DNA of 64,000 nt. Source: Sphingomonas sp. DG1-23. GTDB lineage: Bacteria > Pseudomonadota > Alphaproteobacteria > Sphingomonadales > Sphingomonadaceae. The notes beneath the pieces were generated by a model. That model searched no databases and had not been told where the DNA came from. It was given only the letters and a program-made list of their open reading frames with translations. Position numbers and translations under genes: made by a program. Shown here in pieces: positions 30,865 through 46,473 of the stretch. How positions within the stretch are numbered: position 1 is the first letter of the stretch; the number at the start of each line of letters is the position of its first letter. The stretch lies in assembly GCF_030730875.1 (NCBI RefSeq), contig NZ_JAVAMA010000002.1, positions 124,001-188,000 of the forward strand, written 5' to 3'.

Positions 30865-31250
30865 ACGTCATCCAGACGCTCGAAGCCGAGCAGATCGCCA
30901 AGTTCAACGAGACCAAGAAGATTCCGGAATTCCGCCCGGGCGACACCCTCCGCGTCGGCGTGAAGGTCGTCGAAGGCGAGCGCACCCGCGTGCAGAACTA
31001 TGAAGGCGTGTGCATCGCGCGCGCCAATCGCGGCATGGGCAGCAGCTTCACCGTCCGCAAGATTTCGTTCGGCGAGGGCGTCGAGCGCGTCTTCCCGCTC
31101 TATTCGCCGAACATCGATTCGATCGAAGTCGTCCGCCGCGGCGTGGTGCGTCGCGCCAAGCTCTATTATCTGCGTGGCCGCACCGGCAAGTCGGCACGTA
31201 TCGCCGAGCGCCGCGACGTGCGCCCGACCGAGGTCGCCGCCGCAGAATAA
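30861..31250 (+). CDS. rplS: Ribosomal protein L19
   Basis: A 129-residue L19 with the family core ([49 protein letters not shown] and [14 protein letters not shown]). L19 sits at the 30S-50S interface. ATG 30861 overlaps the trmD stop. An intrinsic terminator follows at 31274, closing the operon that begins at vapB. Confidence 0.96.
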
Positions 31251-31273
31251 GCTTCGGCTTTTCGACACAGAGA

Positions 31274-31308
31274 AAGGGCGCGGTGGCGATGGCCACCGCG
31301 CCCTTTTT
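31274..31308 (+). terminator. Intrinsic terminator after rplS
   Basis: A 14-bp perfect stem, AAGGGCGCGGTGGC (31274-31287) and GCCACCGCGCCCTT (31292-31305), with a GATG loop and a run of T. It ends the vapBC-trmD-rplS transcript. Confidence 0.92.
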
Positions 31309-31442
31309 CGCGTCTGACGGCCCCTGCGCGGAGGAGGGGCCGCGGGCATGTGGGGGAAGGCGGATGGGCTGATCTGCGATCCAGCCGGTGGCGTGCAAAG
31401 AAATTGCCGCCCGATACACCTGCATCCGTAATTGCACCTATA

Positions 31443-31661
31443 ATGGTAAAGAAGATGCTAACGAAAGGCGAACCCGTGTTCGACGCGACGATGTCACAGC
31501 CCCGTTTTCTCGGCCAGCGCCCCGCCCGGACGGCGCCGCTGCGCAACGAGCTTGCCCATTTCGAACTCTGCCCGATGTGCGGCCAGGCCGTCGACCGGCG
31601 CGATATCCATGCCGTGATGCATCACCTGCCGGTGGGGCATCAGCCCATGCCCCGCCACTGA
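31443..31661 (+). CDS. Small protein with CPMCGQ zinc-ribbon-like motif
   Basis: A 72-residue frame if started at the ATG at 31443; ATGs at 31455 and 31491 are also possible. The C-terminal half reads FELCPMCGQAVDRRDIHAVMHHLPVGHQP, a CxxC pair followed by several histidines, which could bind zinc. The upstream frame is continuous but unconvincing. No family is recognised. It ends convergent to the VOC gene. Confidence 0.5.
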   Translation: MVKKMLTKGEPVFDATMSQPRFLGQRPARTAPLRNELAHFELCPMCGQAVDRRDIHAVMHHLPVGHQPMPRH

Positions 31662-31666
31662 GCTTT

Positions 31667-32044
31667 TCACGCGTAGCTGACGATCTCGAACTCGGTCCCG
31701 TCGTGATCGAGGAAATAAAAGCGCCGGCCGGGATCGTAATCGGCATGCGCGAAAGGGACGAGCCCCGCGGCCAGGACGCGGCGCTCCACATCGTCGAGAT
31801 CGTCGACGAGAATTCCGACATGATTGAGCGGCTGGCCCTTGCCGAAAATGGCGTCTTCAGGCGCTTCGGGCGGCGAATAGACCGCGAGATAGGTGCGTTC
31901 GTCGCCGACATGGATGGTGCGGCCATTGTCGCGCGCCGGTCCTTCCCAGCGGATGTGCCAGTCGAACAGATCTGCGAGCAATTGCGCGGTGCGTTCAGGG
32001 CTGCGGACCGTGAGATTGACGTGCTCGATATAGGGTGCCGGCAT
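31667..32044 (-). CDS. VOC superfamily (glyoxalase/bleomycin-resistance fold) protein
   Basis: A 125-residue protein with two beta-alpha-beta-beta-beta units: YIEHVNLTVRSPERTAQLLADLFDW and LNHVGILVDDLDDVERRVLAAG, ending FYFLDHDGTEFEIVSY. H of EHVNL, H of NHVGI and the late E are candidate metal ligands. The ATG at 32044, with AAGGAA upstream, is preferred to 32071. It is divergent from soxR across the SoxR box at 32089, so it is probably a SoxR-regulated gene. Confidence 0.82.
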   Translation of the reverse strand: MPAPYIEHVNLTVRSPERTAQLLADLFDWHIRWEGPARDNGRTIHVGDERTYLAVYSPPEAPEDAIFGKGQPLNHVGILVDDLDDVERRVLAAGLVPFAHADYDPGRRFYFLDHDGTEFEIVSYA

Positions 32045-32088
32045 GGGTTTCCTTTCCGGATTGGAGGCCATGCCAAAGGCAGCTACAA

Positions 32089-32106
32089 CCTCAACCTAAG
32101 TTGAGG
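32089..32106. promoter_or_regulatory. SoxR box between the VOC gene and soxR
   Basis: CCTCAACCTAAGTTGAGG is an 18-bp inverted repeat with the CCTCAA-N6-TTGAGG form of known SoxR operators. On the minus strand it sits between TTGACC and TAGCTG with about 19 bp spacing, the long spacing typical of MerR-family promoters, pointing at the VOC gene. Confidence 0.82.
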
Positions 32107-32130
32107 TCAAGCGCAAAAATCGGAGGCACG

Positions 32131-32601
32131 GTGAACCGCGGAAACGAATTGCTGACGATCGGCGAGCTGGCCGCGCGCACCGGATTGTCGGTATCGGCAG
32201 TGCGCTTCTACGAGGGCAAGGGGCTAGTCCATCCGATCCGTACCAGCGGCAACCAGCGGCGTTTCCTGCGCGCGGACATCCGGCGCATCTCGTTCGCGCT
32301 GATCGCCCAGCAACTCGGCTTCACGCTCCCGCAAATCGCCGCGGAGCTCGCCACATTGCCCGAAGGAACTGCTCCGAGCGCGGCCGACTGGAAGCGGATC
32401 AGCCGCGGCTTTCGTCAGGTGATCGAGACCCGCGTCGCCCAGCTCCAGCGCACGCTCGACGATCTCGACGGCTGTATCGGCTGCGGCTGTCTGAGCTTGC
32501 GCAAATGCGCGCTCTACAATCCCGACGACCGCGCGGCGCAAAATGGTGCCGGGCCGCGCTTCATCCTCGTGTCGCGCAAGGTCGCGATGGGGCTGGACTA
32601 A
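32131..32601 (+). CDS. soxR: Redox-sensitive transcriptional activator SoxR
   Basis: A 156-residue MerR-family regulator. The helix-turn-helix is at 8-45 (LTIGELAARTGLSVSAVRFYEGKGLV) and the [2Fe-2S] cysteines are C115, C118, C120 and C126 (CIGCGCLSLRKC). Oxidation of the cluster, by redox-cycling compounds, activates transcription. The start is the GTG at 32131 with GGAGG six bases before it. The SoxR box lies just upstream. No soxS is present, as usual outside enterobacteria. Confidence 0.94.
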   Translation: MNRGNELLTIGELAARTGLSVSAVRFYEGKGLVHPIRTSGNQRRFLRADIRRISFALIAQQLGFTLPQIAAELATLPEGTAPSAADWKRISRGFRQVIETRVAQLQRTLDDLDGCIGCGCLSLRKCALYNPDDRAAQNGAGPRFILVSRKVAMGLD

Positions 32602-33248
32602 CGGAAGCTGAAATTGACCGGCCGGGCGATCTCGGCCTGCTTGTCGAAGGCGTGGTCGGCATAGGGACCGTCCCGCTCGACCCAATGCAGGAAAAGATGC
32701 GCCGACCAGCCATTGGGATTGGGCACGGTGCGCCCATGGCGCCGCTGAACGCCGCGATAGACCACGGCGTCGCCGGGCTGCATGGTCAGCGCGGCAGGCG
32801 CTTCCGGACCGAAATCCTCCTCGATCCGCAGCGACGGCGCATGATCGCCGCGCGCCAGTTCGAGATCCCATGGCACGCCGTCGCTATAGTCGAGCGTCAG
32901 CGACATGCTGTGCTCGCACGACGGCCGGTCGCTGTGCACCCGGAGGATGTCGCCTTCGCGATATATCCGGAAATAGCTGTAGCTCGGCAGCAAAGTCCTG
33001 CCGCTGACTTGCTCGGCGATCGGCGTGAGCCCCCAGAGCAGGGTCAGCATCGGCGGGAAATGATAGGAGTACATCTCCACGGCTTCGCGCTTCAGCACAT
33101 CCGAAAGATTGTTGAACGCGCTCAGCTCCGCGCCGCTTTTGGCGACTGCGCGCTGGAACTGGTCGAGAAAGGCATTGCAGACCTCGCGGGCGAGCAGCCC
33201 TTCGACAAGGGCATAGCCGTTCCGCTGATAGTCGCCGATCACCTGCAT
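32598..33248 (-). CDS. 2-oxoglutarate/Fe(II)-dependent oxygenase-like protein
   Basis: A 216-residue protein with a probable double-stranded beta-helix. The iron motif HxD is seen in ILRVHSDRPSCEHSMSLTLDY, followed by MQPGDAVVYRGVQRRHGRTVPNPNGWSAHLFLHWVE with the distal histidine. This matches Fe2OG oxygenases. The substrate is unknown. Its stop overlaps the soxR stop by four bases (convergent). Confidence 0.7.
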   Translation of the reverse strand: MQVIGDYQRNGYALVEGLLAREVCNAFLDQFQRAVAKSGAELSAFNNLSDVLKREAVEMYSYHFPPMLTLLWGLTPIAEQVSGRTLLPSYSYFRIYREGDILRVHSDRPSCEHSMSLTLDYSDGVPWDLELARGDHAPSLRIEEDFGPEAPAALTMQPGDAVVYRGVQRRHGRTVPNPNGWSAHLFLHWVERDGPYADHAFDKQAEIARPVNFSFR

Positions 33249-33376
33249 CGTACCGGGATAAGTCGCGCGGGGCCATGGAGCAAGCCGGCGAGGACAGGCC
33301 CTTTACCGCGCCACCCGCGGTCGCGATAAGGCGCGTTCGCCCGCGCTCGCGGTGCGCGATCTCCGGAGAGACGGGA

Positions 33377-35608
33377 ATGCGGGAATGGTTGCTGGGACTG
33401 GCTTTGATTGCGCTGGGAGCACCGCTGATGATCGATGACGCGGCGGCGCAGGCCAAGGAACTCACGCTCGAGCGCCTCTTTGCCAGCCCCGATCTCGCCG
33501 GCACCACGCCGCGCAAGCTGACGCTCTCGCCCGACGGCAAGTTCGTCACCCTGCTCCGCAACCGTGCCGACGAGAAGGAGCGCTTCGACCTCTGGGCGAT
33601 GGACACCCGCACCGGGCAATGGCGGATGCTGGTCGATTCGAAGAAGCTCGGCACGGGCGCGGCGCTTTCCGAGGCCGAGAAGATGCAGCGCGAGCGCGCG
33701 CGGATCGGCGGGACGCGGGGCATCGTTTCCTATGACTGGTCGGCCGATTCGCAATCGGTGCTCGTCCCGCTCGAAGGCGAGCTCTACCTCGCCCGACTCG
33801 ACGGGCGCGTGCACAAGCTCGCCGCCGCAGCAGGGCCCAAGCTCAATGCCGTGATCAGCCCGTCCGGCCGCTTCGCCAGCTATGTCCAGGATCAGAATCT
33901 GGTGGTGATGGATCTCGCCAGCGGCACGCCGAAGCGAGTGACCGAGGATGGCGCGGGCACCGTCCATTGGGGCGAGGCCGAGTTCGTCGCGCAGGAGGAA
34001 ATGGACCGTTCGACCGGCTATTGGTGGTCGCGCGACGACAGCCGCGTGGCGGTCGAGCGTTTCGACGAGGCGCCGGTGGGCGTGGTCACCCGCGCGGCGA
34101 TCGGCGCCGAGGGGACCAATATCTACCAGCAGCGCTACCCCAAAGCGGGGACGGCGAACGCGCTGGTCGAACTCTATGTCATGCGGCCAGACGGCAGCGC
34201 GAAGGTAAAGGTCGATCTCGGCGCGGAGACCGACATCTACCTCGCACGCGTCGACTGGTCGCGCGACGGCAAGACGCTCTACGTCCAGCGCCAGAACCGC
34301 GACCAGACCGTGCTCGACCTGCTCGCGGTCGATCCGGCGACGGGCACGTCGAGCGTGTTGTTCAGCGAGAAATCGGGGGCGAAGAGCTGGGTGAACTTGT
34401 CGAACGCGCTGACGCCGCTCGACGATGGCAGCCTGCTCTGGTGGTCCGAGCGCGAGGGCCACGGCCATCTCTATCGCTTCGCCAGGGGCAAATGGACTCA
34501 GCTTACCAAAGGCGATTGGGAAGTGACGCCCGACGTGGTCGGAGTCGATCAGGCGAGGGGGCAGGTGTTCTTCCTCGGCAACAAGGACGGCGTGCTCGAA
34601 CGGCATCTCTATGCGACGAGCTATCGCAAGTCGGGCGCAGTGACGCGGTTGACCGAAGCCGGCTGGTGGAACGGCGTCGTGATGGATCCGGCGGGAACCC
34701 GCGCGATCGTCACGCGATCGAGCCCTGATCAGCCGTCGCAAGTCTATCTCGCCGATGCCTCGGGCAAGCGGATCGCGTGGGTGAACGAGAATGCAGTCAC
34801 CGCCGCCGATCATCCGTACCACCCATATCTCGCCAATCACCACGAGCGCAGCTTCGGGACGATCAAGGGGCCGGACGGCAGCGATCTGCACTGGGAGATG
34901 GTCTCGCCGAAGCGCGAACCCGGCAAACGCTACCCGGTATTCTTCCAGCATTATGGCGGGCCGCATTCGCAGACGGTGAGCAAGGCGTGGGGCGGGGCGC
35001 TCCAGCAATATATCGTCGACCGCGGCTATATCTGGTTCCAGATCGACAATCGCGGCTCGGCCAATCGCGGCAAGGCGTTCGAGGATGCGATCTGGCACGC
35101 GATGGGGTCGGTCGAGGTCGAGGACCAGATCGCCGGCGCCAATTACGTGAAGTCGCTCGACTTCGTCGATCCGGCGAAGATCGTCACGTATGGCTGGTCC
35201 TATGGCGGCTATATGACGCTCAAGATGCTCGAGGCGGCGCCGGGCGTGTTCGCAGCGGGCGTGGCGGGGGCGCCGGTGAGCAAATGGGAACTCTACGACA
35301 CCCATTATACCGAGCGCTATATGGGCGACCCGACCAAGGTGGCCGCGGCGTACAAGCGCTCCGACACGATCGGCGACGCCAGCAAGATCGCGGATCCGCT
35401 GCTGCTCATCCACGGCATGGCCGACGACAATGTCGTACTCGAGCACACCACCGCTATGGCGGCGACGCTGCAGCAGCAGAAGGTGCCGTTCGAGATGATG
35501 CTCTATCCCGGCCACACCCATAAGGTGGGCGGGCCGGGAGTCAGCGAGCATCTGTGGACGACGATCCTCGATTTCCTCGATCGGCAGACGGCGCCGGCGA
35601 AACCCTGA
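33377..35608 (+). CDS. Secreted S9 family peptidase (dipeptidyl peptidase IV-like)
   Basis: A 743-residue protein with a signal peptide (LLGLALIALGAPLMIDDAAAQA), a DPP-IV N-terminal beta propeller (about 60-480) and a C-terminal alpha/beta hydrolase. Catalytic residues are S608 (GWSYGGYM), D683/D684 (GMADDNV) and H713 or H715 (YPGHTHK). The propeller has the paired-Glu motif region (AEFVAQEEMDRSTGYWWS) that binds the substrate N-terminus. It probably removes Xaa-Pro dipeptides in the periplasm. ATG 33377 is chosen by the signal peptide. Confidence 0.9.
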   Translation: MREWLLGLALIALGAPLMIDDAAAQAKELTLERLFASPDLAGTTPRKLTLSPDGKFVTLLRNRADEKERFDLWAMDTRTGQWRMLVDSKKLGTGAALSEAEKMQRERARIGGTRGIVSYDWSADSQSVLVPLEGELYLARLDGRVHKLAAAAGPKLNAVISPSGRFASYVQDQNLVVMDLASGTPKRVTEDGAGTVHWGEAEFVAQEEMDRSTGYWWSRDDSRVAVERFDEAPVGVVTRAAIGAEGTNIYQQRYPKAGTANALVELYVMRPDGSAKVKVDLGAETDIYLARVDWSRDGKTLYVQRQNRDQTVLDLLAVDPATGTSSVLFSEKSGAKSWVNLSNALTPLDDGSLLWWSEREGHGHLYRFARGKWTQLTKGDWEVTPDVVGVDQARGQVFFLGNKDGVLERHLYATSYRKSGAVTRLTEAGWWNGVVMDPAGTRAIVTRSSPDQPSQVYLADASGKRIAWVNENAVTAADHPYHPYLANHHERSFGTIKGPDGSDLHWEMVSPKREPGKRYPVFFQHYGGPHSQTVSKAWGGALQQYIVDRGYIWFQIDNRGSANRGKAFEDAIWHAMGSVEVEDQIAGANYVKSLDFVDPAKIVTYGWSYGGYMTLKMLEAAPGVFAAGVAGAPVSKWELYDTHYTERYMGDPTKVAAAYKRSDTIGDASKIADPLLLIHGMADDNVVLEHTTAMAATLQQQKVPFEMMLYPGHTHKVGGPGVSEHLWTTILDFLDRQTAPAKP

Positions 35609-35618
35609 GGCGACGACT

Positions 35619-35969
35619 TCAGGGCCGGGCGTCGGTGCCCTGCAAGGCGGCTTGCGCGGCGCGGAGCAGATAGCGTTCCTCCGCGCTGCCGGCCGCCGCA
35701 TCGCCCCAGGCGAAGATCGGGCCCAGGCCGCTGTCGCGTCCGATCCGCTCGGCGACCGCGTGCAGCTCGCGGTTGGTGGGCGCGCGGCCTTCGGCCACGC
35801 ATTCGACGACCTCCGCCGCGAACAGCGAACTGGAACTCCCCGTCACCTTCCTCACCCTCTCGGTCGTTTGGGTCAATGTGGGGTGGGTTTCGGCAAGCGG
35901 AAGGGGGCATGCGCATGCTTGCGCCGAGATGCACCCGCCGGTCGATGGCGAGCGGGCGAAGGCGCGCAT
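35619..35969 (-). CDS. Hypothetical protein
   Basis: An open frame of up to 116 residues. The credible part is the C-terminal 80 (SSLFAAEVVECVAEGRAPTNRELHAVAERIGRDSGLGPIFAWG...). Possible starts are TTG 35876 or GTG 35855; the first 30 residues (Cys/Pro-rich) look non-coding. No family is recognised. It is convergent with the S9 peptidase. Confidence 0.4.
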   Translation of the reverse strand: MRAFARSPSTGGCISAQACACPLPLAETHPTLTQTTERVRKVTGSSSSLFAAEVVECVAEGRAPTNRELHAVAERIGRDSGLGPIFAWGDAAAGSAEERYLLRAAQAALQGTDARP

Positions 35970-36331
35970 TCACGGATGCTCAGCGAGACGGTTTGAGAGG
36001 TTGCGCAAGCGTCTTTACGCAGTCATCATGACGAGATTGGCCTCTTCTTCGGAGAAGAGCGTCGGGGCACATGATAGGGGGCGGCGTGGAAATTGTTCTG
36101 CTGCGCGATCTGAGAATCCGGCCGCCGGATCATGATTTAAGCCATGTCCCCGGAGAGCCCGCCATATCTGTCTATTTGTCGGGGCCGGGCCTTGATTGGC
36201 CGAACCGATAGCGCTCGTCCCTCCTCGGGTACGACATTTTCCTTGCTGATATCGCCAGCGCAACAGCGACAAATGATGCGGATACGCCACGCTTTCCGGC
36301 TTGAGATCCGCTTCGAATGACGGAGAGTCGA
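35970..36331. other. Intergenic region upstream of the RHS locus
   Basis: About 360 bp with lower G+C than the flanking core genes. It holds a hairpin CTCTTCT-TCGG-AGAAGAG at 36042-36059 and no credible coding frame. The promoter for the RHS genes should be here, but no clear -35/-10 pair stands out. It marks the left edge of a segment of different base composition. Confidence 0.5.
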
Positions 36332-38224
36332 ATGGTCCTTTTTGCTCGCCGGGTCAGATCATTGTGCATCACGGCACTGGCAACGAATGCGGCGATCTGC
36401 GGAGCCTCCTTCGCACAGGCGCCGCTCATGCCGGAGCCCCTCGAAATCAAGATGGAAGACGAGAACGGCGTCGACGTCGCCTCGGGCTTCACCCATTTCA
36501 GCGTCGACGATGTCGAACTGGCCGGACTGCGACACAGCATCCGCAGTATCCACGGAAACTATGTTATGGGGTTTCCCAAGGGCGCAATGGGTGATTCCTT
36601 CCATGGCGGCCTGGGATATTATTCGCCCATACCCGGCGGCGGGCAATGGGATTACCGGCCAAGCTGGGTAGTCGGGATGGGCGGCGGCGGCGAAACCTTC
36701 TTCATCAATCCCAACGGTACGCTCGAAGCGACGAAAGGAGGCTCTCTCGTCGCCGATACCCCCGGCGTGAATATTGGTAGCCTCGCGTCCTGCGGTAACA
36801 CCGGGATCTGGACCTACACGGCCGGCGACGGGGCAATCATGAAGATCGACACGAGCAAGGGTCATGTCGGTCTGAGTGGTGGCCCGCGAAGCGTGGCCCC
36901 CGGCTTCTGCGGCGTGGCGACCAAGATCACCTATCCGAACGGGCTGATCGTGGACATCAACGTCAAGAGCCGAAATGACAGGTATTCCCGGATACAATCG
37001 GTCACGCGGAACGACGGGTTTCAGCTCAAATACAATTATGTCGCAAACGCAGTCGACGACGTCGGATTTCTCGAGCTCCAGAGTGTGGTCGCCGTCAACA
37101 ACGCGTTCGAAACGTGCGACCCCATGGCCGACACCTGCGCGCTTCCCGGCATTCGCCGCCAATCCTCCTATGCATGGACTACGGGCGCGAAATCGCTGAC
37201 GGTGACGAACCAGGGCGGCGGAGCCACGCGCTTCACGCTCGACCGGTTCGACCGGGTGGTCGGCGTGAAGCCGCCGACGAGCGCGGTCGACAAGGTCAAT
37301 TACGAATATTGCGCGCGGCCGCCGCATTTCGGCCCCGGAGGAGTCTGGCTGGAGCCGACTCCGGCGGAGCAGGCCCAGATGTGTTCGGTGACCACCTTCG
37401 TATTGGGAGGGAGTACCCCGGGCATCAATATCACGAATGTCCATGACCGGACGCGGAAGGTCACTCGGGACGGTCTCGTCTGGACCTATAATTTCCCGTC
37501 CGGAATGTACGGCTATTATTATCTGAAGTACGACTCGGTCGCGCCCAATGGCGAGACGCGAATGGCGCTCTCCACCATCCTTGGAACTGGCGCGCTGCTC
37601 GTCGTCGGCTCGAGCGAGAAAGTCGCGAATTTCGAGAATAGCTCGCGGAATCGCATGACGAGTGCGCAGCTTCGCGGGGGGCCGCTCGAGACCTATAGCT
37701 ACGATGCGCGCGGCAATATGCTTTCGGACGGCATCACCAGCGCCGACTTCGCTGCGACCTGCGCGAACATCAATACCTGCAACAAGCCGGTTTCGGTGAA
37801 GGACCCGGCGCAGAACGAGACTTCGTATACTTATTATGATCATGGCGGTGTGCGGACCGAGACCGGTCCGATGGTGAACAATATCCGGCCGCAGAAGCGC
37901 TTCGACTATGTCCAGCGCTATGCCTGGTTCAGGAATGCGGCGGGGGTGATGACGCGCTCGGCCGATCCCATCTGGAAGCTCGCCAGTGAAAGCTTCTGTC
38001 GCAACAGCGCCGCGACCGGCAATCCGGCCGCCCCCTGCGCGGGCAATGACGAGGTGCTGACCACCTATGACTATGGGCCGGATAGCGGTCCCAACAATTT
38101 GCTGACGCGCGGCAAGGTGATGACGGCGGACGGCGTCTCGCTGCGAACCTGCTACGGTTACGATCAATATGCCAACAAGATCAGCGAGACCGAGCCCAAG
38201 GCCGGATTGACGGTGTGCGCATGA
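36332..38224 (+). CDS. RHS/YD-repeat protein, N-terminal chain, secreted
   Basis: A 630-residue protein with a signal peptide ([23 protein letters not shown]) and a body of beta-rich YD-type strands: [69 protein letters not shown]. This is the N-terminal half of an RHS shell. It has no core or toxin region. Many cysteines occur (about 20), unusual for this genome. ATG 36332 with GGAG seven bases upstream is preferred to 36317. The stop overlaps the ATG of the next gene, which continues the shell. Confidence 0.8.
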
Positions 38225-40806
38225 CCCGCCTCGTCCGCCACCGGGCGTTCTGGTCCGGCATCCTGGCCATGATCGTCGCGGGAGCGAGCGCGCTCCCTGG
38301 CCTCGCGCATGCTCAGGCGTCGGCCTCCCCTTACACGACCGGCTATCGGTACGACGTCGGCGGACGCGAGACCGGCGTGATCTCGCCGGATCCCGACGGG
38401 CCAGGGCCGCTCCGCTTCGCCGCGGTGCGCCGGACCTATAATGGGGCCGGCCATCTCACCCGGGAAGAAAGGGGCGAACTCGCGTATTGGCAGCCGGAGA
38501 GCGTCGCGCCGGTCGACTGGACTGGTTTCACGGTCTTCAAGGTCGTCGAGCATCTCTATGACGATTGGGGAGGCCGGACCCGGACCGTAGAGAGCGCCGA
38601 CGGCACGATCGGCACGGCCTATGCGGTCACGCAGATGAGCTACGACGCCTATCATCGGCTCGATTGCACCGCGGAGCGGATGAACCCGGCCGCCTTCGCC
38701 AACCTTCCGACGAGCGCCTGCGCGCTCGGTCTTCAAGGAAATTTCGGCCCTGATCGGATCACCCGCAACTTCTACGATGAAATCGGCCAGTTGCTGAAGA
38801 TAACCAAGGCGCTGGGCATAACCGCAGCCAACGGTTTTCCCAATACGCTGCAGCAAGATTATGCGACCTATACCTATGGTGGCGGCCGGTCCGCCTATGG
38901 CAAGCCGATCTCGATCAAGGACGCCAACGGTAACCTGGCCACCATGGAATATGGTGGGTCGATCTTCAATCACATCACGAAATGGAGCTTCCCTTCGGCA
39001 ACCGTGCCCGGGCAGGTCAGTTCGGACGACTACGAAGCCTATACCTACGACGCGAACGGCAATCGCACCTCGTTGACGAGGCGCGACGGCCAGGTAATCG
39101 GCTATAGTTACGACGCGCTCGACAGGATGGTCTTCAAAGATGTCCCCGGAGGTGCCGCGGCCGACGTCCATTATGGCTATGATCTGCAGGGGCTGCCGCT
39201 CTTCGCGCGTTTCGGGTCTGCGAGCGGTCCCGGCATCACCAATAGCTATGATGGGTTCGGTCGGCTCCTGTCGACCCAGACCAATCAGGATCCGGCCGGC
39301 CCCACAATTGCCTACACCTGGGATGCCAACGGCAATCGCGCGAGCGTAAAATACCCGGGCGAGCTGACCTTCTCCTACGCCTATGACGGGCTCGACCGGC
39401 TGGATACGATCAAGAACCCTTCGGCAGCGACGATCGTCGACTATGCCTACACACCCGGCGGCGACGTCGAGAGGGTGACGCGCGGCGCGGTCGTCACCAG
39501 CTACGGGCGCGACAGTGCCGGCCGCCTCGCGAGCATGGCCGACGATCTCGACGGAGCGGGAACGACCCACGACGTCACGCTGGGCTTCGCATATAATCCC
39601 TCGGACCAGATCGTCTCGCGGACGCGGTCGAACGATCGCTACGTGTTCGGCGGCGATGCCAACGTCAACCGCGGCTACACGACCAACGGTCTCAACCAAT
39701 ATACGGCCGCGGGAGGGTCGGCATTCTGCTATGACAAGAACGGAAACCTGACCGCGGAAGGGGCCCGGGTCTATAAATATGACGTCGAGAACCGGCTGGT
39801 CGAAGTGCGGAAGCAACTGTCCGCCGAGTGCCCGGCGACGAACTATGCCGGCCCGCTGGTCGCCAGTCTGACCTATGATCCGCTGGGCAGGCTTTTCGAA
39901 ACTTCGGACGGCAGCGTCGTCACGCGCTTTCTCTATGATGGCGACGAATTGCTCGCCGAGAAGGACGGCTCAGGGGCGTGGCTTCGGCGCTACGTTCACG
40001 GCGTCGCCGACGACGACCCGCAGATCTGGTATGAAGGCAGCACGCTTGCGGACATGCGGACGCTGCAATCCGATCATCAGGGTTCGATCGTGTCGGTTGC
40101 AGACGGCATCGGCGGCTCCGTCCTCGAGATCAACAGCTATGACGAGTACGGAATTCCGAGCGCCGCGAATATGGGGCGGTTCCAGTATACCGGGCAGGCC
40201 TGGATCCCCGAGATCGGCATGTACCACTATAAGGCCCGCATCTATTCGCCCATTCTCGGGCGGTTCCTGCAGGTCGATCCGATCGGATACGAGGATCAGG
40301 TAAACCTCTATGCGTACGTCGCAAATGATCCCGTAAACCGGACAGATCCCACGGGAATGGAGCTCGGGTGCATCACGCTTCAAACCGGCTGCTGGGGCGA
40401 TCGTAGCGATCCCGAAACTGCGCGTCGCGAGCAAAGGGCCGGCACCGCCATGACAGTCATGAGCGTCGGCGGTGCGCTTATCTTGACGCGCGGCATGGCG
40501 ACTCCGGTCATTAGATATTTTTACCGTTTCGAGATCGCGGCTTTGCAACGACAAGCCAACGAACTGGTGAGGGGCGCGCGCTCGTTGCTTCGTCGGGCTG
40601 CGGAGCATCGCCAAAAAGTCATACAGGAAACGCGCAATCCAACCGTAAAGCCGGGAATGGAGAAAATGTCTCCCGAGGCCCAGGCAGCGCAACGCGCCGT
40701 CCGCGCGAAAAAGAACCTGCGTGATGCTGAGAATTTCGAACGTCAGGCAGCAGAGAAGCTGCGGCAGGCGGAGGCGCTACGTCGAAAAGCGGATGCAATA
40801 CGATGA
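38221..40806 (+). CDS. RHS repeat protein with core domain and variable C-terminal tip, secreted
   Basis: An 861-residue protein with its own signal peptide ([21 protein letters not shown]). It has many YD repeats ([54 protein letters not shown]) and the RHS core motif [33 protein letters not shown] ending near residue 710. The last 150 residues are a variable tip: a hydrophobic stretch (about [17 protein letters not shown]) then charged helices to a Lys/Arg/Ala coiled coil. No known nuclease or ADP-ribosyl motif is seen. It overlaps both neighbours by four bases. Confidence 0.85.
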
Positions 40807-41207
40807 TGTGTGCCACGCTTAAAATCATGACGTTGGATGAAGGAAGGCATTTTCGGCGAAGCGGAACGCATCTGGCCGTATTTGCCTGGATAAGATCCGC
40901 ACCCGAAGAGCGGCTGCATGCATTATTCGATTTCATTATGAACAGATCTCCATGCCTGGTCGGTTTTTCTGGCGATGATTCCGAGAAAGTTCACGATGAA
41001 TTCGACGATGAGATTCTCGCCAGGGACCTTCCTTATGCGATAACGGCTTTCTTTCGCGGGGGGCTGGAAACTGACTGGCTGGAATTTAACGATATAGATT
41101 GTGAGTCGGGGCCAGTGGACGAAATCGTTTTAATTCCTGTGGGAAGTAATCCGGAAGTCGATAATCTGATGCGGATTGAAATCGAGAAATTGACGAAGAT
41201 GCGGTAG
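40803..41207 (+). CDS. Candidate immunity protein for the RHS tip
   Basis: A 134-residue acidic protein (many Asp/Glu, for example [16 protein letters not shown] and [15 protein letters not shown]) starting at an ATG that overlaps the RHS stop. Its base composition is clearly poorer in G+C than the core genome. A small acidic gene directly after a polymorphic toxin gene is usually its immunity gene. No family is recognised. Function is inferred from position and charge only. Confidence 0.6.
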
Positions 41208-41321
41208 GGAACCCGCCTTGCGATATGGGCGAACTTCATGCTCGGTCGCTGCAGCATGTATCCTGAAAAGTGTTCGGGCGCTGCTGCATCTCGCGACCTG
41301 ATTCCGCGGAATCGCGGAATT

Positions 41322-41398
41322 TGGCGCGCCCGGTTGGATTCGAACCAACGACCACAGGCTTAGAAGGCATGTGCTCTATCCAGCTGAGCTACGGGCGC
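41322..41398 (-). tRNA. tRNA-Arg (anticodon TCT)
   Basis: On the minus strand the 77-nt sequence begins GCGCCCGTAGCTCAGCTGG, has anticodon TCT in a CTTCTAA loop, TTCGAATC in the T loop, acceptor CGGGCGC, discriminator G and an encoded CCA. D and T arms are intact. The anticodon stem CATGC/GCCTG has one T-C mismatch in the middle. Its 3' end faces the RHS locus. It decodes AGA and AGG. Confidence 0.93.
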
Positions 41399-41459
41399 GC
41401 GCGGCGACAGCCTCTGCCACGGATTGCGTGCCGGTGAAACCGCCATCATAACCGCCGTC

Positions 41460-42206
41460 ATGACCGAGGGGGCAGAGAGACCGGCGCAGGTCGCCGCACG
41501 CGACGTGCGCGGCGGGCATTTCCGCTATTACGACTTCGTCATGGCGGCGTTCGTTGCGATCTTGCTGCTGTCGAACGTGCTCGGTGCGGGCAAGGTCGCG
41601 CAGGTCTGGCTGCCCGGGATCGGCTATTGGCCGTTCGGCGCGGGCATCCTGTTCTTCCCGCTCTCCTATGTGATCGGCGACGTGCTGACCGAGGTCTATG
41701 GCTATGCCCGTGCCCGGCGGGTGATCTGGGCGGGCACCGGCGCCGTGTTGTTCATGGCCTTCATGTCGTGGGTGGTGGTGATGCTGCCGCCGGCGCCGAG
41801 CTGGGGCAATCAGGCCGCATACGAGACGATCTTCGGACAGGTGCCGCGGATCGTGCTCGCCTCGGTTTGCGCGTTCTGGGCGGGCGAGTTTGTCAATTCC
41901 TATGTGCTGGCGCGGATGAAATTGTGGACCAAAGGGCGCATGCTCTGGACGCGCACGATCGGATCGACCTTTGCCGGGCAGGCGATCGACAGCCTGATCT
42001 TCTATCCGCTCGCTTTTCTCGGCGCCGAAGGCTGGACCACCGAGCTCGTGATCAAGGTGATGTTCACCCAATGGGCATTGAAGGTCGGCTGGGAAGTGCT
42101 GCTGACCCCGGCGACCTATGCGATCGTCGGTTTTCTCAAGCGCCGCGAAGGCGTCGACGTCTATGACGAGGGGACCGACTTCACGCCCTTCGCCACGCGG
42201 GTCTGA
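41460..42206 (+). CDS. yhhQ: Queuosine precursor transporter (YhhQ family)
   Basis: A 248-residue membrane protein with six to seven helices. Family motifs are LLSNVLGAGK, FFPLSYVIGDVLTEVYGYARARRVIW, and RTIGSTFAGQAIDSLIFYPLAF. It imports queuosine precursors (preQ0/preQ1) in characterised members. ATG 41460 is used; a GTG at 41424 would add 12 residues near the tRNA. Its stop overlaps the next gene. Confidence 0.9.
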   Translation: MTEGAERPAQVAARDVRGGHFRYYDFVMAAFVAILLLSNVLGAGKVAQVWLPGIGYWPFGAGILFFPLSYVIGDVLTEVYGYARARRVIWAGTGAVLFMAFMSWVVVMLPPAPSWGNQAAYETIFGQVPRIVLASVCAFWAGEFVNSYVLARMKLWTKGRMLWTRTIGSTFAGQAIDSLIFYPLAFLGAEGWTTELVIKVMFTQWALKVGWEVLLTPATYAIVGFLKRREGVDVYDEGTDFTPFATRV

Positions 42207-42535
42207 TGAGCTTGCTCCAGACGGCCAAATTCTGGCTGGTCCAGCATCTCGGCCTCGCCAAGGACGCGCTGCACATCCATATCGGACTGCTGCTGTTCGT
42301 CGGCAGCGCGCTCGTCTTCCGCTGGCCGATCCGCAGCTGGAAGCCTTGGGCGGTCGCTCTCGCCGCGACGCTGCTCGGCGAGGGATGGGATCTGCGCGAC
42401 AGCGTGACCGCGCGTACGCCGATCGATCTCTGGGCAAATTTGCACGATTTGTGGAACACGATGCTCTGGCCGAGCCTGCTCGTGGTGCTGGCGCGGACCA
42501 CCGCGCTTCTCGGAGAACGGACGCCTCGCGGCTAG
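42206..42535 (+). CDS. Small membrane protein of unknown function
   Basis: A 109-residue protein with two or three hydrophobic helices (ALHIHIGLLLFVGSALVFRW, PWAVALAATLLGEGW, MLWPSLLVVLARTTALL). It overlaps yhhQ by one base (TGATG), so it is translated together with the transporter. The DLWANLHDLWNTMLWPSLL segment recalls VanZ-like proteins but is not enough to assign it. Confidence 0.6.
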   Translation: MSLLQTAKFWLVQHLGLAKDALHIHIGLLLFVGSALVFRWPIRSWKPWAVALAATLLGEGWDLRDSVTARTPIDLWANLHDLWNTMLWPSLLVVLARTTALLGERTPRG

Positions 42536-42611
42536 GCATGCAAACTGCGCACTTGCATATTGTTGCAGTGTCGGAACAATCTCGCCCCGAAGCCGGAAGG
42601 GGGAGCGTTCC

Positions 42612-43439
42612 ATGACTGCCGAGGAAGCGAATTTCACCAGCGCGGGCGGACTCAACATCTTTTATCGCGTGTGGCAGCCGGCGGATGCGCCCCGCGCGGT
42701 GGTGGTGATCTGCCACGGCGTCAACTCGCACGGCGGGCAGCACGCATGGGCGGCGGAGCGGCTGATCGAGAGCGGTTATGCGGTGCTGGCGCTCGATCTG
42801 CGCGGGCGCGGGCGTTCGGAGGGCGAGCGTTTCTATGTCGAGGACGTGGCGGATTATGTCGCGGATGTCGCGGGCACGATCGAGATCGCCAAGGCACGCT
42901 ATCCGGGATCGAAGGTCTTCCTGCTCGGGCACAGCGCCGGCGGGGTGACCTCGGCGAGCTATGTGCTCGATCATCAGGCCGAGATCGACGGATTCATCTG
43001 CGAGAGCTTCGCGTTCCAGGTCCCCGCGCCGGGCTTCGCGCTCGCCGCGATCAAGGGGCTGAGCCACATCGCCCCGCGACTGGGCGTGCTCAAGCTCAAG
43101 AACGAGGATTTCTCGCGCGATCCGGCAAAGGTCGCCGAACTCAACGCCGATCCGCTGACGCAGGACGAGACCCAGCCCGCGGCCACCGTCGCGGCGCTGG
43201 TCCGCGCCGACGAGCGGCTGCGCGAGGAATTCTCGACGATCACGCTGCCGGTGCTGATCCTGCACGGCAGCGCCGACAAGGCGACGGTGTGCAAGGGGAG
43301 CGAGTTCTTCTACGAGACCGCCGGATCGGCCGACAAGACGCTCAAGATCTACCAGGATCATTATCACGACCTGCTCGCCGACCTGGGCAAGGAGGAAGTG
43401 ATGGGCGACATCAAGGCGTGGCTCGAGGCGCGGCTGTAG
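42612..43439 (+). CDS. Alpha/beta hydrolase (monoacylglycerol lipase-like)
   Basis: A 275-residue alpha/beta hydrolase. The oxyanion region is VICHGVNSHGGQH, the nucleophile is S108 (LLGHSAGG), the acid is in LHGSADKAT and the histidine in QDHYHDLL. This HGxNSHxG pattern is typical of Serine aminopeptidase S33/monoacylglycerol lipase-type enzymes. No signal peptide. AGGGGGAGC precedes the ATG at 42612. Substrate unknown. Confidence 0.85.
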   Translation: MTAEEANFTSAGGLNIFYRVWQPADAPRAVVVICHGVNSHGGQHAWAAERLIESGYAVLALDLRGRGRSEGERFYVEDVADYVADVAGTIEIAKARYPGSKVFLLGHSAGGVTSASYVLDHQAEIDGFICESFAFQVPAPGFALAAIKGLSHIAPRLGVLKLKNEDFSRDPAKVAELNADPLTQDETQPAATVAALVRADERLREEFSTITLPVLILHGSADKATVCKGSEFFYETAGSADKTLKIYQDHYHDLLADLGKEEVMGDIKAWLEARL

Positions 43440-43933
43440 CGATTCATGTCGACCCGGCTCTGACCGGGATCTCGTGCGGCTCTGTCCCGCGCCTCGCCCG
43501 AGGTCCCGGCTTGCGCCGGGATGACGGTGCGGGCTGATCTGGCGCGCCAAAGTTGCGAAAGTTGAGGGTCTGGCGCGGTTTTCGCCGGATCCCCCTCGGA
43601 AGCGTAGTGCGACGCGGCCGCGACGCGCCCGCCACGCGACACCGGCGCGACAGTAGCGCACCACCCGTGCGCCACTCGCGCCACGCCTTCGCGGCCGTGG
43701 CGCGACGCCGACGCGACGCCGGCGCGGCACCCGGGCCACGCGTTCGCCGCGCCAAATGCACTTCGGGGACAGGCCCGGCGCACGGCGATCGGTTCGACGA
43801 GGTCAAGGAGCGGCCGGCAATCCGGACCGTCCGAGGCGAGCAGACGAAATCCTATTTTGCAAGCGTCAGGCAGCGGCTTCCCTTCCGATGCAAGGTAATG
43901 GCCGCCGTTCGTCAAATCGCTATCATCGCGGCC
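43440..43933. other. Intergenic: palindrome pair and GC-rich degenerate repeat
   Basis: At 43450-43527 lie CCCGGC palindromes, including GGTCCCGGCTTGCGCCGGGATGAC (43502-43525). From 43609 to 43753 the sequence is almost pure G+C with many short related units (GCGACGC, GCGCCAC, CCACGCG), read in one frame as Arg-rich peptide. I do not consider it coding. The DUF1493 gene's promoter should be in 43760-43930. Confidence 0.55.
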
Positions 43934-44395
43934 ATGACCGACCCGCTACAGGCCATCACCGATCTGCTGCGAGAAGAGCACGGCATTCCTTCGGCCAGGC
44001 TGCAGCCCTGGGCACGGCTGGGGCCGGATCTTGGAGTGGACGGAGACGACGCCTCCGAGCTGTTGCAGCGCCTTCATGAAGCGTTCGGCACCGATTTCTC
44101 CGCCCTCGAGGAACAGTGGACCGAGTTCTTCCACGTCGAGGGCACATCGCCGCGCGCGGTCCTGTGCGGCTTGCTGCTGCTGATCCCGTCAATTGCCCTC
44201 ACGCTATGGGTCGCAGCAGCCTTCGACTTGCCGGATGCCGCGGCTCCCGCCATCGGGGTGGTGACCTTCTTCGCGTCCTCCGCCGGGCTCGGCCGATTAT
44301 TTCCGGGAAAGCCGAAGCGGCCGGTCACGATCGAGGGATTGGCCGATATCGTGCGGGCGGGCGCTTGGCCGGCCGATCCGGCCAAGGTCCGCTAA
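43934..44395 (+). CDS. DUF1493 (acyl-carrier-like) protein with membrane helices
   Basis: A 153-residue protein: residues 1-70 are acyl-carrier-like (DPLQAITDLLREEHGIPSARLQPWARLGPDLGVDGDDASELLQRLHEAFGTDF), as in DUF1493. There is no serine in the usual DSL position, so phosphopantetheinylation is unlikely. Two membrane helices follow (LCGLLLLIPSIALTLWVAAAF and AIGVVTFFASSAGLGRLF). ATG 43934 is used; a GTG/ATG further upstream would add poor sequence. Function unknown. Confidence 0.65.
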   Translation: MTDPLQAITDLLREEHGIPSARLQPWARLGPDLGVDGDDASELLQRLHEAFGTDFSALEEQWTEFFHVEGTSPRAVLCGLLLLIPSIALTLWVAAAFDLPDAAAPAIGVVTFFASSAGLGRLFPGKPKRPVTIEGLADIVRAGAWPADPAKVR

Positions 44396-44541
44396 CGTAG
44401 CTGCGATCACCGACGCATCGGACGCAAGGCGAATTGTGGTCCCGCGCCGGATCAGCCTGTTTCGATTTGCAAACACAAAGGCTTGCACTGAACTCTTATC
44501 GTAAACATAGGTCGCGGTGGGGCAGGGTTCAGGGGGAAATA

Positions 44542-45450
44542 GTGGCCAGACATGGGTTGGTTGCGGCGATTGCCGTGCTGGGTCTTTCCGGCTGCGGTGG
44601 ATCGGGCGGAGCATCGGGAAGCGTGACCGCCCCGCCGACGACCGCCGCGCCGACTCCGACTCCGACGCCAACCGCGGCGCCTGCGCCGTCCTATGAAGTT
44701 CTCGATTTCAGCCGCGATCGTTCATTCGACGCCTTCGGGTTGCGAACCGTGACTACGGCCAGTGCGGCGACCGTCACGCTCGACAGCGAATCCCCGGCGA
44801 TCGGGTTCGATTACCAGGTGGCCAATCGCGGCTATCATGTCTTCTATTTCGACGAGAAAATGGACTTCGTGACGGTCCCGGTGCCGCTCGCCAATTTCGG
44901 CTATGCCAATGATTATTTCAGCACGGGCGATCTCGGCTTCAACCGCTCGCAATATGCCGCGGGCATGAACTATGCCGGCTATGCATCGTGGCGCAACACG
45001 GTCTTGCCCGGCTCGATCGAGCGCAAACTGATATTCGGGGCGAAGACCCGGCCCAGCGATTTCCCGGCTACGGGGGTGTCGAGCTATCTCGCGCGGAGTC
45101 AGCTGTCGATTCTGGATCCGATGGGGCGAATGATGAATTCGGTCAATTCGACCGACAAGAGTTTCACGATCGACTGGCCGACCCGGCGGGTGACCGCGAC
45201 CATCCTCGTCGAGCAATTGGGCTCGGACGTGCAATTCGCGCCGTTCACGCTGGAGCTGTCCGGGAACGTCGTGGTGGCGATCGACAATCAGATCATCGGC
45301 ACCGCTTCGGGCGGCGGCTATTCGGGGCGCATCATCGGAAACGTATTTGGGCCGGCCGGCGTCGAGGCAGGGCTAGCCTATCGGCTGGAAGGCCCGGCGG
45401 GGCAGTTGCTCAGCGGAGTCATTCTGGGCCGTCAGCTTCCGCCGCGATAA
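44542..45450 (+). CDS. Lipoprotein with TbpB-like beta-barrel C-terminus
   Basis: A 302-residue lipoprotein: signal peptide with lipobox LGLSGC (cleavage before the Cys near residue 18), a Thr/Pro-rich linker, then beta-rich sequence. The end, YSGRIIGNVFGPAGVEAGLAYRLEGPAGQLLSGVILGRQ, has the GxxFGPxAxExG...GVxxGR form of transferrin-binding-protein-like barrels. It may sit on the cell surface. Start GTG 44542 has GGGGGAA upstream. No TonB receptor gene is next to it. Confidence 0.7.
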   Translation: MARHGLVAAIAVLGLSGCGGSGGASGSVTAPPTTAAPTPTPTPTAAPAPSYEVLDFSRDRSFDAFGLRTVTTASAATVTLDSESPAIGFDYQVANRGYHVFYFDEKMDFVTVPVPLANFGYANDYFSTGDLGFNRSQYAAGMNYAGYASWRNTVLPGSIERKLIFGAKTRPSDFPATGVSSYLARSQLSILDPMGRMMNSVNSTDKSFTIDWPTRRVTATILVEQLGSDVQFAPFTLELSGNVVVAIDNQIIGTASGGGYSGRIIGNVFGPAGVEAGLAYRLEGPAGQLLSGVILGRQLPPR

Positions 45451-45471
45451 TCTGCGGCCGAGCGGCGCGGA

Positions 45472-46137
45472 TCAGGCGACGGCTTCGAGCAGTCCCTCGA
45501 ACAGGCGGCGGCCGTCGGTGCCGCCGTGCGCGGCTTCGATGCGGCGCTCGGGATGGGGCATCATGCCGAGTACGTTGCCCGATTTGTTGAGCAGGCCGGC
45601 AATGTTGCGGGCCGAGCCGTTGACGTCCTCGGCATAGCGGAAGGCGACGCGGCCTTCGCCTTCGATCCGGTCGAGCGTCTCGGCATCGGCGAAGTAATTG
45701 CCGTCATGGTGCGCGACGGGGACGGTGATCGTCTCGCCGCTCTGATAGGCGCTGGTGAAGATCGACTGGCTGTTGTCGACGGTCAGCGCGACGTTGCGGC
45801 AGACGAAGTTGAGTCCCGAATTGCGCATCAGCGCGCCGGGCAGCAGCCCGGCTTCGGTGAGGATCTGGAAGCCGTTGCAGATGCCGATCACCGGCACGCC
45901 GCGCTCCGCCGCCTCGACCACCGCGCGGACCACCGGCGAGCGCGCCGAGATCGCGCCGCAGCGGAGATAGTCGCCATAGGAGAAGCCGCCCGGCAGGGCG
46001 ATCAGGCCGACGCCCGAAGGCAGCGCGCTCTCGCCGTGCCAGACCATAGCCGGGGCAGTGCCGGTCACGTCCTCGAGCGCAGTCGCGATGTCGCGATCGC
46101 AATTGGAGCCGGGGAAGACGATGACCGCGGTCTTCAT
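45472..46137 (-). CDS. purQ: Phosphoribosylformylglycinamidine synthase subunit PurQ
   Basis: A 221-residue class I glutamine amidotransferase. The nucleophile is in GICNGFQIL, the early motif is [10 protein letters not shown], and the His/Glu pair is in [10 protein letters not shown]. It supplies ammonia for FGAM synthesis in purine synthesis. ATG 46137 overlaps the purS stop. The large subunit gene purL is not adjacent. Confidence 0.96.
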
Positions 46138-46364
46138 GCCCGCTCGATCCGGTAATTCTCGATCACGGTGTTGGCGAGCAGCTTGCGGCACATCTCGTCG
46201 ATCGCTGCATCGCTGGTGCCCTCGGCGACCTCGAGCTCGAAGATCTTGCCGGCGCGGACGTCTTCGACGCCGTCGAAGCCGAGGCCGGCGAGCGCATGCT
46301 GGATGGCCTTGCCCTGGGGGTCGAGCACGCCGTTCTTCAAGGTGACGATGATGCGGAGCTTCAT
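46134..46364 (-). CDS. purS: Phosphoribosylformylglycinamidine synthase subunit PurS
   Basis: A 76-residue PurS ([43 protein letters not shown]). It bridges PurQ and PurL in the three-part FGAM synthase. It overlaps purQ and lies after purC and a terminator-like hairpin. Confidence 0.96.
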
Positions 46365-46429
46365 GGGGGGAGCCTATGGCCGCGCGCGCCGAGTCTCGCA
46401 ATCGGAAATGCGGCGTGCGGGAATCGAAA

Positions 46430-46457
46430 GGGGCGCGGAGGATGTCCTCCGCGCCCC
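46430..46457 (-). terminator. Hairpin between purC and purS
   Basis: A perfect 13-bp inverted repeat (GGGGCGCGGAGGA / TCCTCCGCGCCCC) followed on the minus strand by TTTCG. It could terminate part of the purC transcripts, so purSQ may be partly separate. Confidence 0.7.
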
Positions 46458-46473
46458 ATTTGCCGCCGTTGCG

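What the first reader, a model, noticed from the sequence alone, without database searches (positions are those of the whole stretch)
36332..41207. Two-chain secreted RHS system with unrecognised toxin tip and partner gene
A normal RHS shell is here split into two overlapping genes, and each has its own signal peptide. The second has the core motif ending DPTG and a 150-residue tip with a hydrophobic stretch and helical, charged end that matches no toxin fold I know. An acidic, lower-G+C gene overlaps its stop, as immunity genes do. A split at a clean ATGA with a new signal peptide suggests a working two-part shell rather than decay.
Basis: partly seen in the sequence, partly recalled or inferred. 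Interest (0 to 1): 0.75.

Follow-up and report, generated by a model that had tools for sequence, protein, structure and literature searches.

The report
Two-chain exported RHS toxin shell
A bacterial toxin-carrying protein shell that is normally one long chain is here encoded as two chains, each apparently with its own export signal, and the same clean split recurs with many different tips in related bacteria, so it looks like a working design and not a broken gene.

Summary
Two overlapping RHS genes (36332-38224, 38221-40806) are followed by an acidic 134-aa gene (40803-41207); both junctions are ATGA overlaps.

The split is not decay. 65 distinct chain 1 tails in Sphingomonadales, the window's included, stop at this point. 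Chain 2 follows in 65 of 65, with a signal peptide by a simple rule in 62, and all 65 end in a cysteine pair. Of 19 relatives unbroken here, none has the pair or a signal peptide. Tips differ between loci; the closest pairs show purifying selection on both chains. Separate models place chain 1 on the N-terminal and chain 2 on the C-terminal part of solved RHS shells.

Best reading: a Sec-exported polymorphic toxin whose shell is built from two chains in the periplasm, like Tc B-C toxins in principle, but broken about 140 residues earlier and without TcB families. The tip (pI 10.8, predicted helical hairpin) and partner have no convincing relatives; assembly, toxicity and immunity are inferred. 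VipB was not found in 6 of 9 carriers, GspD not in 3 of 12: exit route open. New variant of a known kind.

The parts
36332..38224 (+). Chain 1: exported N-terminal part of the RHS shell, 630 aa
   Evidence: Open frame; weak RHS/YD repeat hits; model aligns to N-terminal part of Rhs shells, e.g. 7q97 292-751 and 8qjb 360-812
36332..36421 (+). Probable Sec signal peptide of chain 1 (residues 1-30)
   Evidence: Read from the sequence: basic start, moderate hydrophobic stretch, SFAQA end; did not pass the rule
38150..38152 (+). Codon of Cys607, first of the terminal cysteine pair
   Evidence: Invariant in 28 of 28 aligned chain 1 tails
38216..38218 (+). Codon of Cys629, second cysteine, next to last residue of chain 1
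   Evidence: Invariant in 28 of 28; pair in 65 of 65 distinct broken and 0 of 19 unbroken sequences; 1 of 4418 internal control windows
38221..38224 (+). ATGA overlap of chain 1 stop and chain 2 start
   Evidence: Sequence
38221..40806 (+). Chain 2: exported C-terminal part of the RHS shell plus core and tip, 861 aa
   Evidence: RHS_repeat 3.7e-27; Rhs_assc_core 5e-22; aligns to C-terminal part of Rhs shells, e.g. 8h8a 502-1120
38221..38319 (+). Sec signal peptide of chain 2 (about residues 1-33)
   Evidence: Passes the rule; 62 of 65 distinct relatives pass a similar rule
40138..40359 (+). RHS-associated core, residues 640-713, with the PxxxxDxxG motif and two Asp 23 apart (D686, D709), the pattern of TccC3 self-cleavage
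   Evidence: TIGR03696 match; P704, D686, D709 and G712 invariant in 30 rows; motif from PMC7861908 (passages); residues 687-765 are low-confidence in the model
40357..40803 (+). C-terminal tip, 149 aa, pI 10.8; candidate toxin
   Evidence: No Pfam family above E 0.03 and no NCBIfam family; pI
40444..40488 (+). Hydrophobic stretch of the tip (about residues 742-756)
   Evidence: Read from the translation
40498..40800 (+). Predicted helical hairpin of the tip (residues 760-805 and 818-860)
   Evidence: AlphaFold2 model, block pLDDT about 51-88 here
40803..41207 (+). Partner gene, 134 aa, pI 4.6, no signal peptide seen; candidate immunity protein
   Evidence: Overlaps chain 2 stop by ATGA; no family; no convincing relative in genomes searched

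Best explanation
This is a polymorphic toxin of the RHS kind whose hollow shell is built from two chains. SHOWN by sequence and models: one tightly packed operon (two ATGA overlaps); chain 2 begins with its own signal peptide; the break lies between two YD repeats at the point where fused relatives run on; the same break is conserved in Sphingomonadales; chain 1 has a cysteine pair at its free end that unbroken relatives lack; each chain models as a complementary part of known RHS shells. INFERRED: both chains are made together and sent through Sec separately; in the oxidising periplasm the last hairpin of chain 1 is closed by a Cys607-Cys629 disulfide; the two chains close into one cocoon around the tip; the core aspartates D686 and D709 cut after Gly712, freeing the tip inside; the complex leaves by a route that need not be T6SS or T2SS; the strongly basic tip acts in the cytoplasm of a rival, on nucleic acid or membrane; the acidic, cytosolic-looking partner neutralises it in the producer.
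For: Recurrence: 28 pairs with this break including the window; 32 of 33 named loci, the 33rd ending before chain 2; 65 distinct tails in all, chain 2 adjacent in 65, signal peptide by rule in 62. Cysteine pair 65 of 65 broken, 0 of 19 unbroken; 1 of 4418 internal windows. Fused proteins are colinear with both chains, e.g. L068 matches chain 1 at 1-627 and chain 2 at 44-713. Shell size: two mature chains about 1263 residues (median of 22), fused about 1189 (median of 7), with assumed signal lengths. dN/dS 0.12-0.33 for chain 1 and 0.07-0.37 for the chain 2 shell, among the closest pairs of 18 rows each. Complementary structural coverage. Tips vary; among 38 scanned are matches to Tox-GHH, Ntox37, DUF4329 and Peptidase_M91. 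Small genes start within 20 nt of the chain 2 stop in 33 of 35 loci.
Against: No joint model and no experiment shows that the chains bind. Chain 1 and chain 2 diverge almost independently (Mantel r 0.148, 82 of 2000 permutations as high, n 41); near-identical chain 2 shells occur with quite different chain 1s (L032 tandem: 95% against 47%). That gives no support for a private interface. One RhsP entry (8h8b) aligns chain 1 over its whole length, not only the N-terminal part. Tip and partner have no relatives, so toxin and immunity roles rest on position; small frames were called downstream without a chance control. Chain 1 of the window has a weak-looking signal peptide. No exporter is identified.
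Confidence: 0.72

Rival explanations
1. The two chains are both exported but do not build one shell: chain 2 alone packs the tip, and chain 1 has become a separate adhesin, anchor or chaperone.
For: Chain 1 and chain 2 diverge almost independently and some near-identical chain 2 shells sit beside different chain 1s; chain 2 has its own signal peptide; the two could only be modelled separately.
Against: The two chains together have about the length of one fused shell and cover complementary parts of several solved shells with little overlap; chain 2 lies next to chain 1 in 65 of 65 distinct cases.
Confidence: 0.17
2. An ordinary fused RHS gene broken by mutation, now decaying.
For: Fused relatives exist (L060-L071); some loci really look broken, such as L059 and L145.
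Against: Same break in 65 distinct sequences with adjacent chain 2, signal peptide in 62, cysteine pair in 65; purifying selection. The broken L059 has neither pair nor signal peptide, and its homology runs on across the break.
Confidence: 0.03
3. A Tc toxin B-C pair (TcB plus TcC).
For: Two-chain RHS shell with self-cleaving core motif and variable tip; both models match TcB-TcC structures.
Against: No TcB or SpvB family in chain 1 at E up to 1; TcC residues 6-10 fall on chain 2 residues 176-180, so the break is elsewhere; no open frame above 863 aa between 30000 and 47000, so no TcA-size gene there; T6SS Rhs shells match better than Tc by Foldseek E-value.
Confidence: 0.03
4. The tip is not a toxin: a structural or anchoring helical tail, and the 134-aa gene is an unrelated or chaperone gene.
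For: Tip has no family and a plain predicted helical hairpin; its structural matches are long helices at Z 9.0 or less, below the level that means anything for helices.
Against: Tips in the same place vary strongly between loci (mean column identity 10% over 38) and a few match known toxin families; in 35 of 38 loci a small frame follows chain 2 closely, with differing sequences.
Confidence: 0.15

Closest known systems
RHS polymorphic toxins with a signal peptide (the T2SS/signal-peptide class of Zhang et al. 2012, PMC3482391, passages seen)
   Same: RHS/YD repeats, conserved core with DPTG, variable C-terminal tip, small adjacent partner gene, signal peptide
   Different: Shell made as two chains, the second with its own signal peptide
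TcB-TcC shell of Tc/ABC toxins (PMC11067744, passages seen; PMC7861908, passages)
   Same: Hollow RHS shell of two proteins, self-cleaving core, variable cargo; fused and separate forms both reported
   Different: Break about 140 residues earlier in structural register; no SpvB/TcB families, no TcA-size frame within 30000-47000; signal peptide on the second chain; terminal cysteine pair (presence of the last two in Tc not tested here)
T6SS Rhs effectors (RhsA, RhsP, Tse5, Tse15)
   Same: Among the best structural matches of both chains
   Different: Those are single T6SS-delivered chains; here two chains with signal peptides, no PAAR or VgrG match, and VipB not found in 6 of 9 carriers examined, though present in the window's genome
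Fused sphingomonad RHS proteins (L060-L071)
   Same: Colinear with chain 1 plus chain 2
   Different: One chain, continuous junction, no cysteine pair there

Membership tests
RHS polymorphic toxin | RHS/YD repeats | tested here: met
   PF05593 3.7e-27 in chain 2, 0.0011 (below cut-off) in chain 1; TIGR01643 above cut-off in both
RHS polymorphic toxin | RHS-associated core with self-cleavage motif | tested here: met
   TIGR03696 5e-22; D686, P704, D709 and G712 invariant in 30 rows; motif PxxxxDxxG as in PMC7861908. Cleavage itself not tested
RHS polymorphic toxin | C-terminal tip that varies between loci | tested here: met
   38 tips of 45 chain 2 rows (7 missed by my motif rule), 10% mean column identity; a few match known toxin families
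RHS polymorphic toxin | Adjacent immunity gene | tested here: inconclusive
   A frame of 60 aa or more follows in 35 of 38 loci with a tip, within 20 nt in 33 of those 35; no chance control; neutralisation not testable here
RHS polymorphic toxin | Tip is toxic | not testable with these tools
   Needs expression
Tc toxin (TcB-TcC) | TcB families (SpvB, TcdB middle) in the first chain | tested here: not met
   Only RHS_repeat at E up to 1
Tc toxin (TcB-TcC) | Break at the TcB/TcC boundary | tested here: not met
   TcC residue 6 (4igl_D) and 10 (5kis_B) align with chain 2 residues 176 and 180 as first aligned residues
Tc toxin (TcB-TcC) | TcA gene linked | tested here: not met
   No open frame above 863 aa among those overlapping 30000-47000; rest of window and genome not searched for TcA
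T6SS Rhs effector | PAAR or VgrG domain on the protein | tested here: not met
   No such Pfam match at E up to 1 in chain 1 or chain 2
T6SS Rhs effector | T6SS present in carriers | tested here: inconclusive
   VipB found in 3 of 9 carriers, the window's genome among the 3

The most novel reading that the evidence does not exclude
An undescribed, order-wide class of two-chain RHS cocoons assembled in the periplasm and exported without a strict need for T6SS or T2SS, in which the break is a selected feature: chain 1's free end is locked by a disulfide hairpin, parts of chain 1 and chain 2 recombine freely because the seam is generic, and breaks with new signal peptides have arisen at more than one place in the shell (L055 in the same genome, perhaps L154 and L150).
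Probability: 0.45. Interest if true: 0.72.

Novelty: new variant of a known kind. Interest (0 to 1): 0.57.

Why it matters
RHS shells are thought of as one folded cage around a toxin. A conserved natural split with a second export signal makes it testable how such a cage closes, why it would be built outside the cytoplasm, and how sphingomonads deliver these toxins when a T6SS sheath gene was not found in 6 of 9 carriers examined. The cysteine signature gives a simple marker for finding more members, and the loci hold many tips with no known family.

Tried and rejected
Decay was rejected (see rivals). Tip: Pfam, NCBIfam, PHROGs, PADLOC, PDB sequences and plasmids gave nothing useful. Genome searches gave only weak matches, E 7e-4 or worse, apart from its own locus. 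Structural matches of the tip (Z 9.0 or less) are long helices and were not used. Partner: nothing convincing. Chain 1 on plasmids: one Asticcacaulis record at 24% identity. The one-clade AU test was badly posed, because L055 and L038_S2 were left outside the group; it is not used. In the same tree 6 of 46 candidate rows, partial ones, were left out. Mantel support for co-divergence of the chains is weak and is reported as evidence against. T2SS as the required exporter was rejected: 3 of 12 carriers lack GspD above cut-off. misread loci on the minus strand; one search replaced it, but its rule for 'split' used the cysteines, so the counts given here come, whose rule looks at the stop codon. 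The model was built from split tails. I looked for a paper describing the split (open-licence PMC full text; listings only) and saw none in the rows listed; most of these lists were capped, and papers outside that library were not searched.
Full report
WHAT IS THERE. Three genes on the plus strand form one tightly packed operon. Chain 1 (36332-38224, 630 aa) and chain 2 (38221-40806, 861 aa) overlap by ATGA, and the 134-aa partner (40803-41207) overlaps chain 2 by ATGA. Chain 2 carries RHS repeats and the RHS-associated core, ending DPTG at residue 712. The core holds PxxxxDxxG and two aspartates 23 residues apart (D686, D709). This is the spacing of D651 and D674, which PMC7861908 gives as critical for self-cleavage of TccC3 (passages seen). 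Chain 1 has only weak repeat hits by sequence. Chain 2 passes a hand-made signal peptide rule. Chain 1 does not, though it looks like one by eye; 21 of 28 chain 1s passed, and two of the seven misses (L034, L035) are cut by a contig end.

IS THE SPLIT REAL. A search of 199 genomes (the window's own among them) with chain 1 gave matches in 29. The matches held frames of about 570-820 aa that stop where chain 1 stops, and frames of about 1300-1500 aa that run on, besides shorter and cut ones. I fetched 40 stretches and read the genes. With the window, 28 pairs break at the same point. In 27 of them chain 2 passes the signal peptide rule; the exception, L038, has a signal-like sequence but no usual start codon before it. 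In one more locus, L055 in the same genome, the break is about 95 residues further on, again with a signal peptide and an ATGA overlap. L059 is different: homology runs on across the break and there is no signal peptide, as expected of a frameshift. Twelve stretches (L060-L071) hold fused genes, two of them running off a contig.

A scan of named genome contigs gave 33 loci in Sphingomonas, Sphingobium, Sphingorhabdus, Sphingosinicella, Citromicrobium, Qipengyuania, a Novosphingobium MAG and unnamed sphingomonads. 32 are split in the same way; the 33rd (Novosphingobium) ends before chain 2. Many repeat genomes already seen. One of the two search patterns contained the first cysteine, so for loci found by it that cysteine is not an independent finding; the second one is. 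A search of the order found matches in 54 of 396 genomes and 26 of 84 genera, split and fused together. It returned 30 loci, the best matches to a split-type query, so split against fused among them is not a frequency.

COUNTING WITH ONE RULE. One search took the window and loci L032-L071, L077-L109 and L115-L144, found each tail with a profile built from 28 split tails, and called it broken if a stop codon follows within 25 residues of the match. After removing duplicates there are 65 broken tails (28, 18 and 19 distinct from the three sets, the window included) and 19 unbroken ones (L055 and L059, which break elsewhere, among these). A chain 2 core follows the broken tails in 65 of 65. Its start passes a signal peptide rule in 62 of 65; the misses are L038, L127 and L136. 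The terminal cysteine pair is in 65 of 65. In the unbroken ones the pair is in 0 of 19 and a signal peptide at the junction in 0 of 19. One search, on 46 of these pairs, gives a control: 1 of 4418 internal windows of chain 1 has the pair. I read the pair (Cys607 and Cys629 here) as a disulfide that closes the last hairpin at the free end. It is a prediction; no distance was measured.

SELECTION AND HISTORY. I compared 18 chosen rows of each chain and printed the closest pairs. dN/dS is 0.12-0.33 for chain 1 (five comparisons, two of them the same pair from two sources; a sixth was an identical copy) and 0.07-0.37 for the chain 2 shell (eight comparisons). In a tree of 40 chain 2 cores (6 of 46 partial rows left out), 29 of the 30 rows labelled split lie in one group with three fused rows; one of these (L060) is nested deep inside, so a return to the fused state, or recombination, has occurred. 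The thirtieth is the frameshifted L059. Chain 1 and chain 2 do not diverge in step (Mantel r 0.148). In the L032 tandem the chain 2 shells are 95% alike and the last 370 residues of chain 1 47%; in L050 and L053 91% and 56%. In L049 and L050 chain 1 is 91% and chain 2 71% alike, but the start of chain 2 is 87% alike, so that change lies inside chain 2. Parts of the two genes recombine, and not only at the junction. This fits a generic seam, but it is also the main argument against a private, co-evolving interface.

STRUCTURE. Chain 1 was modelled with 29 sequences (mean pLDDT 70.5, pTM 0.76) and chain 2 with 30 (77.4, 0.66; residues 687-765 under 50). On RhsP, chain 1 falls on 149-559 (8h8a, Z 16.2, rmsd 5.1, 373 aligned) and chain 2 on 502-1120 (Z 30.4, rmsd 3.5, 561 aligned). 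On the Salmonella bongori shell they fall on 360-812 and 768-1414 (8qjb), and on RhsA on 292-751 and 775-1340 (7q97; chain 2 from residue 162 only). In a second RhsP entry (8h8b) the range of chain 1 runs over the whole shell, 147-1152, so the assignment is not clean in every row. In natural TcC chains the first aligned residue, 6 (4igl_D) or 10 (5kis_B), lies on chain 2 residue 176 or 180. So the Tc break and this break are about 140 residues apart, and the two-chain state looks convergent, not inherited. The global TM-scores are low (under 0.5 for the query), so only the fold and the order of the parts are claimed. The two chains could not be modelled together.

TIP AND PARTNER. Of 45 chain 2 rows, 38 gave a tip by my motif rule. 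Scanned against Pfam at E up to 0.01, two match DUF4329 and one each Tox-GHH, Ntox37, Peptidase_M91 (0.009) and a sorting-nexin domain (0.0044); one has a weak NCBIfam match (0.0088). The window's tip matches nothing there. It is the most basic of the 35 tips whose downstream frame I could read (pI 10.8) and is predicted as a helical hairpin. A frame of 60 aa or more starts within 20 nt of the chain 2 stop in 33 of those 35; I ran no control for chance frames. By a simple rule 17 of the 35 look exported or membrane-bound and 18 cytosolic. All six tips with an HE..H-like motif have exported-looking partners (6 of 17 against 0 of 18, Fisher p 0.008); I chose this motif after seeing the tips. The window's partner is of the cytosolic, acidic kind. 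On that pattern I infer a target in the cytoplasm.

EXPORT. The T6SS sheath gene VipB is found in 3 of 9 carriers examined, the window's genome among them; one of the six without it is only 88% complete. The T2SS secretin GspD passes its cut-off in 155 of 199 relatives and in 9 of the 12 carriers of this split that I know among them; G040, G075 and G090 lack it. Neither seems required in general, but the window's genome has both.

KNOWN OR NEW. Sec-exported RHS toxins are a known class, and a two-chain RHS shell is known from TcB-TcC (passages only). I saw no paper on a split RHS shell in sphingomonads or outside Tc, in open-licence PMC text only and from capped listings. I file it as a new variant of a known kind.

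Noticed in passing
L055:1659-6130: Same genome, contig C17: a second RHS pair broken at another place (about chain 2 residue 131) with its own signal peptide and ATGA overlap, no cysteine pair, and a tip whose sequence has a GHH motif.
   Followed up: partly
L154:957-5431 of the reverse strand; L150:1268-5826: Further two-gene variants whose first frame ends in a longer Gly- or Pro-rich tail with cysteines.
   Followed up: no
L060; L140: Fused RHS proteins with very similar junctions (EDGPxAGxADTTRWRYD); L060 is nested inside the split group in the tree, as if re-fused or recombined.
   Followed up: partly
L038, L053, L057, L060, L067, L070: Partial chain 2 copies without a signal peptide by rule, downstream of full systems, like orphan RHS cassettes.
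   Followed up: no
L145:950-6113: An RHS gene broken into three frames; looks like real decay.
   Followed up: partly
G000: C10, C11, C14, C16, C17: The window's genome holds at least four pairs with this break (C11, C14 twice, C16), one with another break (C17) and one fused gene (C10).
   Followed up: partly
L032:2104-12208: Two split systems in tandem with nearly identical chain 2 shells but different chain 1s and tips.
   Followed up: partly
6710-6805: ARAGORN calls a tRNA-Ala with anticodon agc, unusual for bacteria as far as I recall; probably a false call.
   Followed up: no
41322-41398: tRNA-Arg (tct) on the minus strand just downstream of the partner gene.
   Followed up: no
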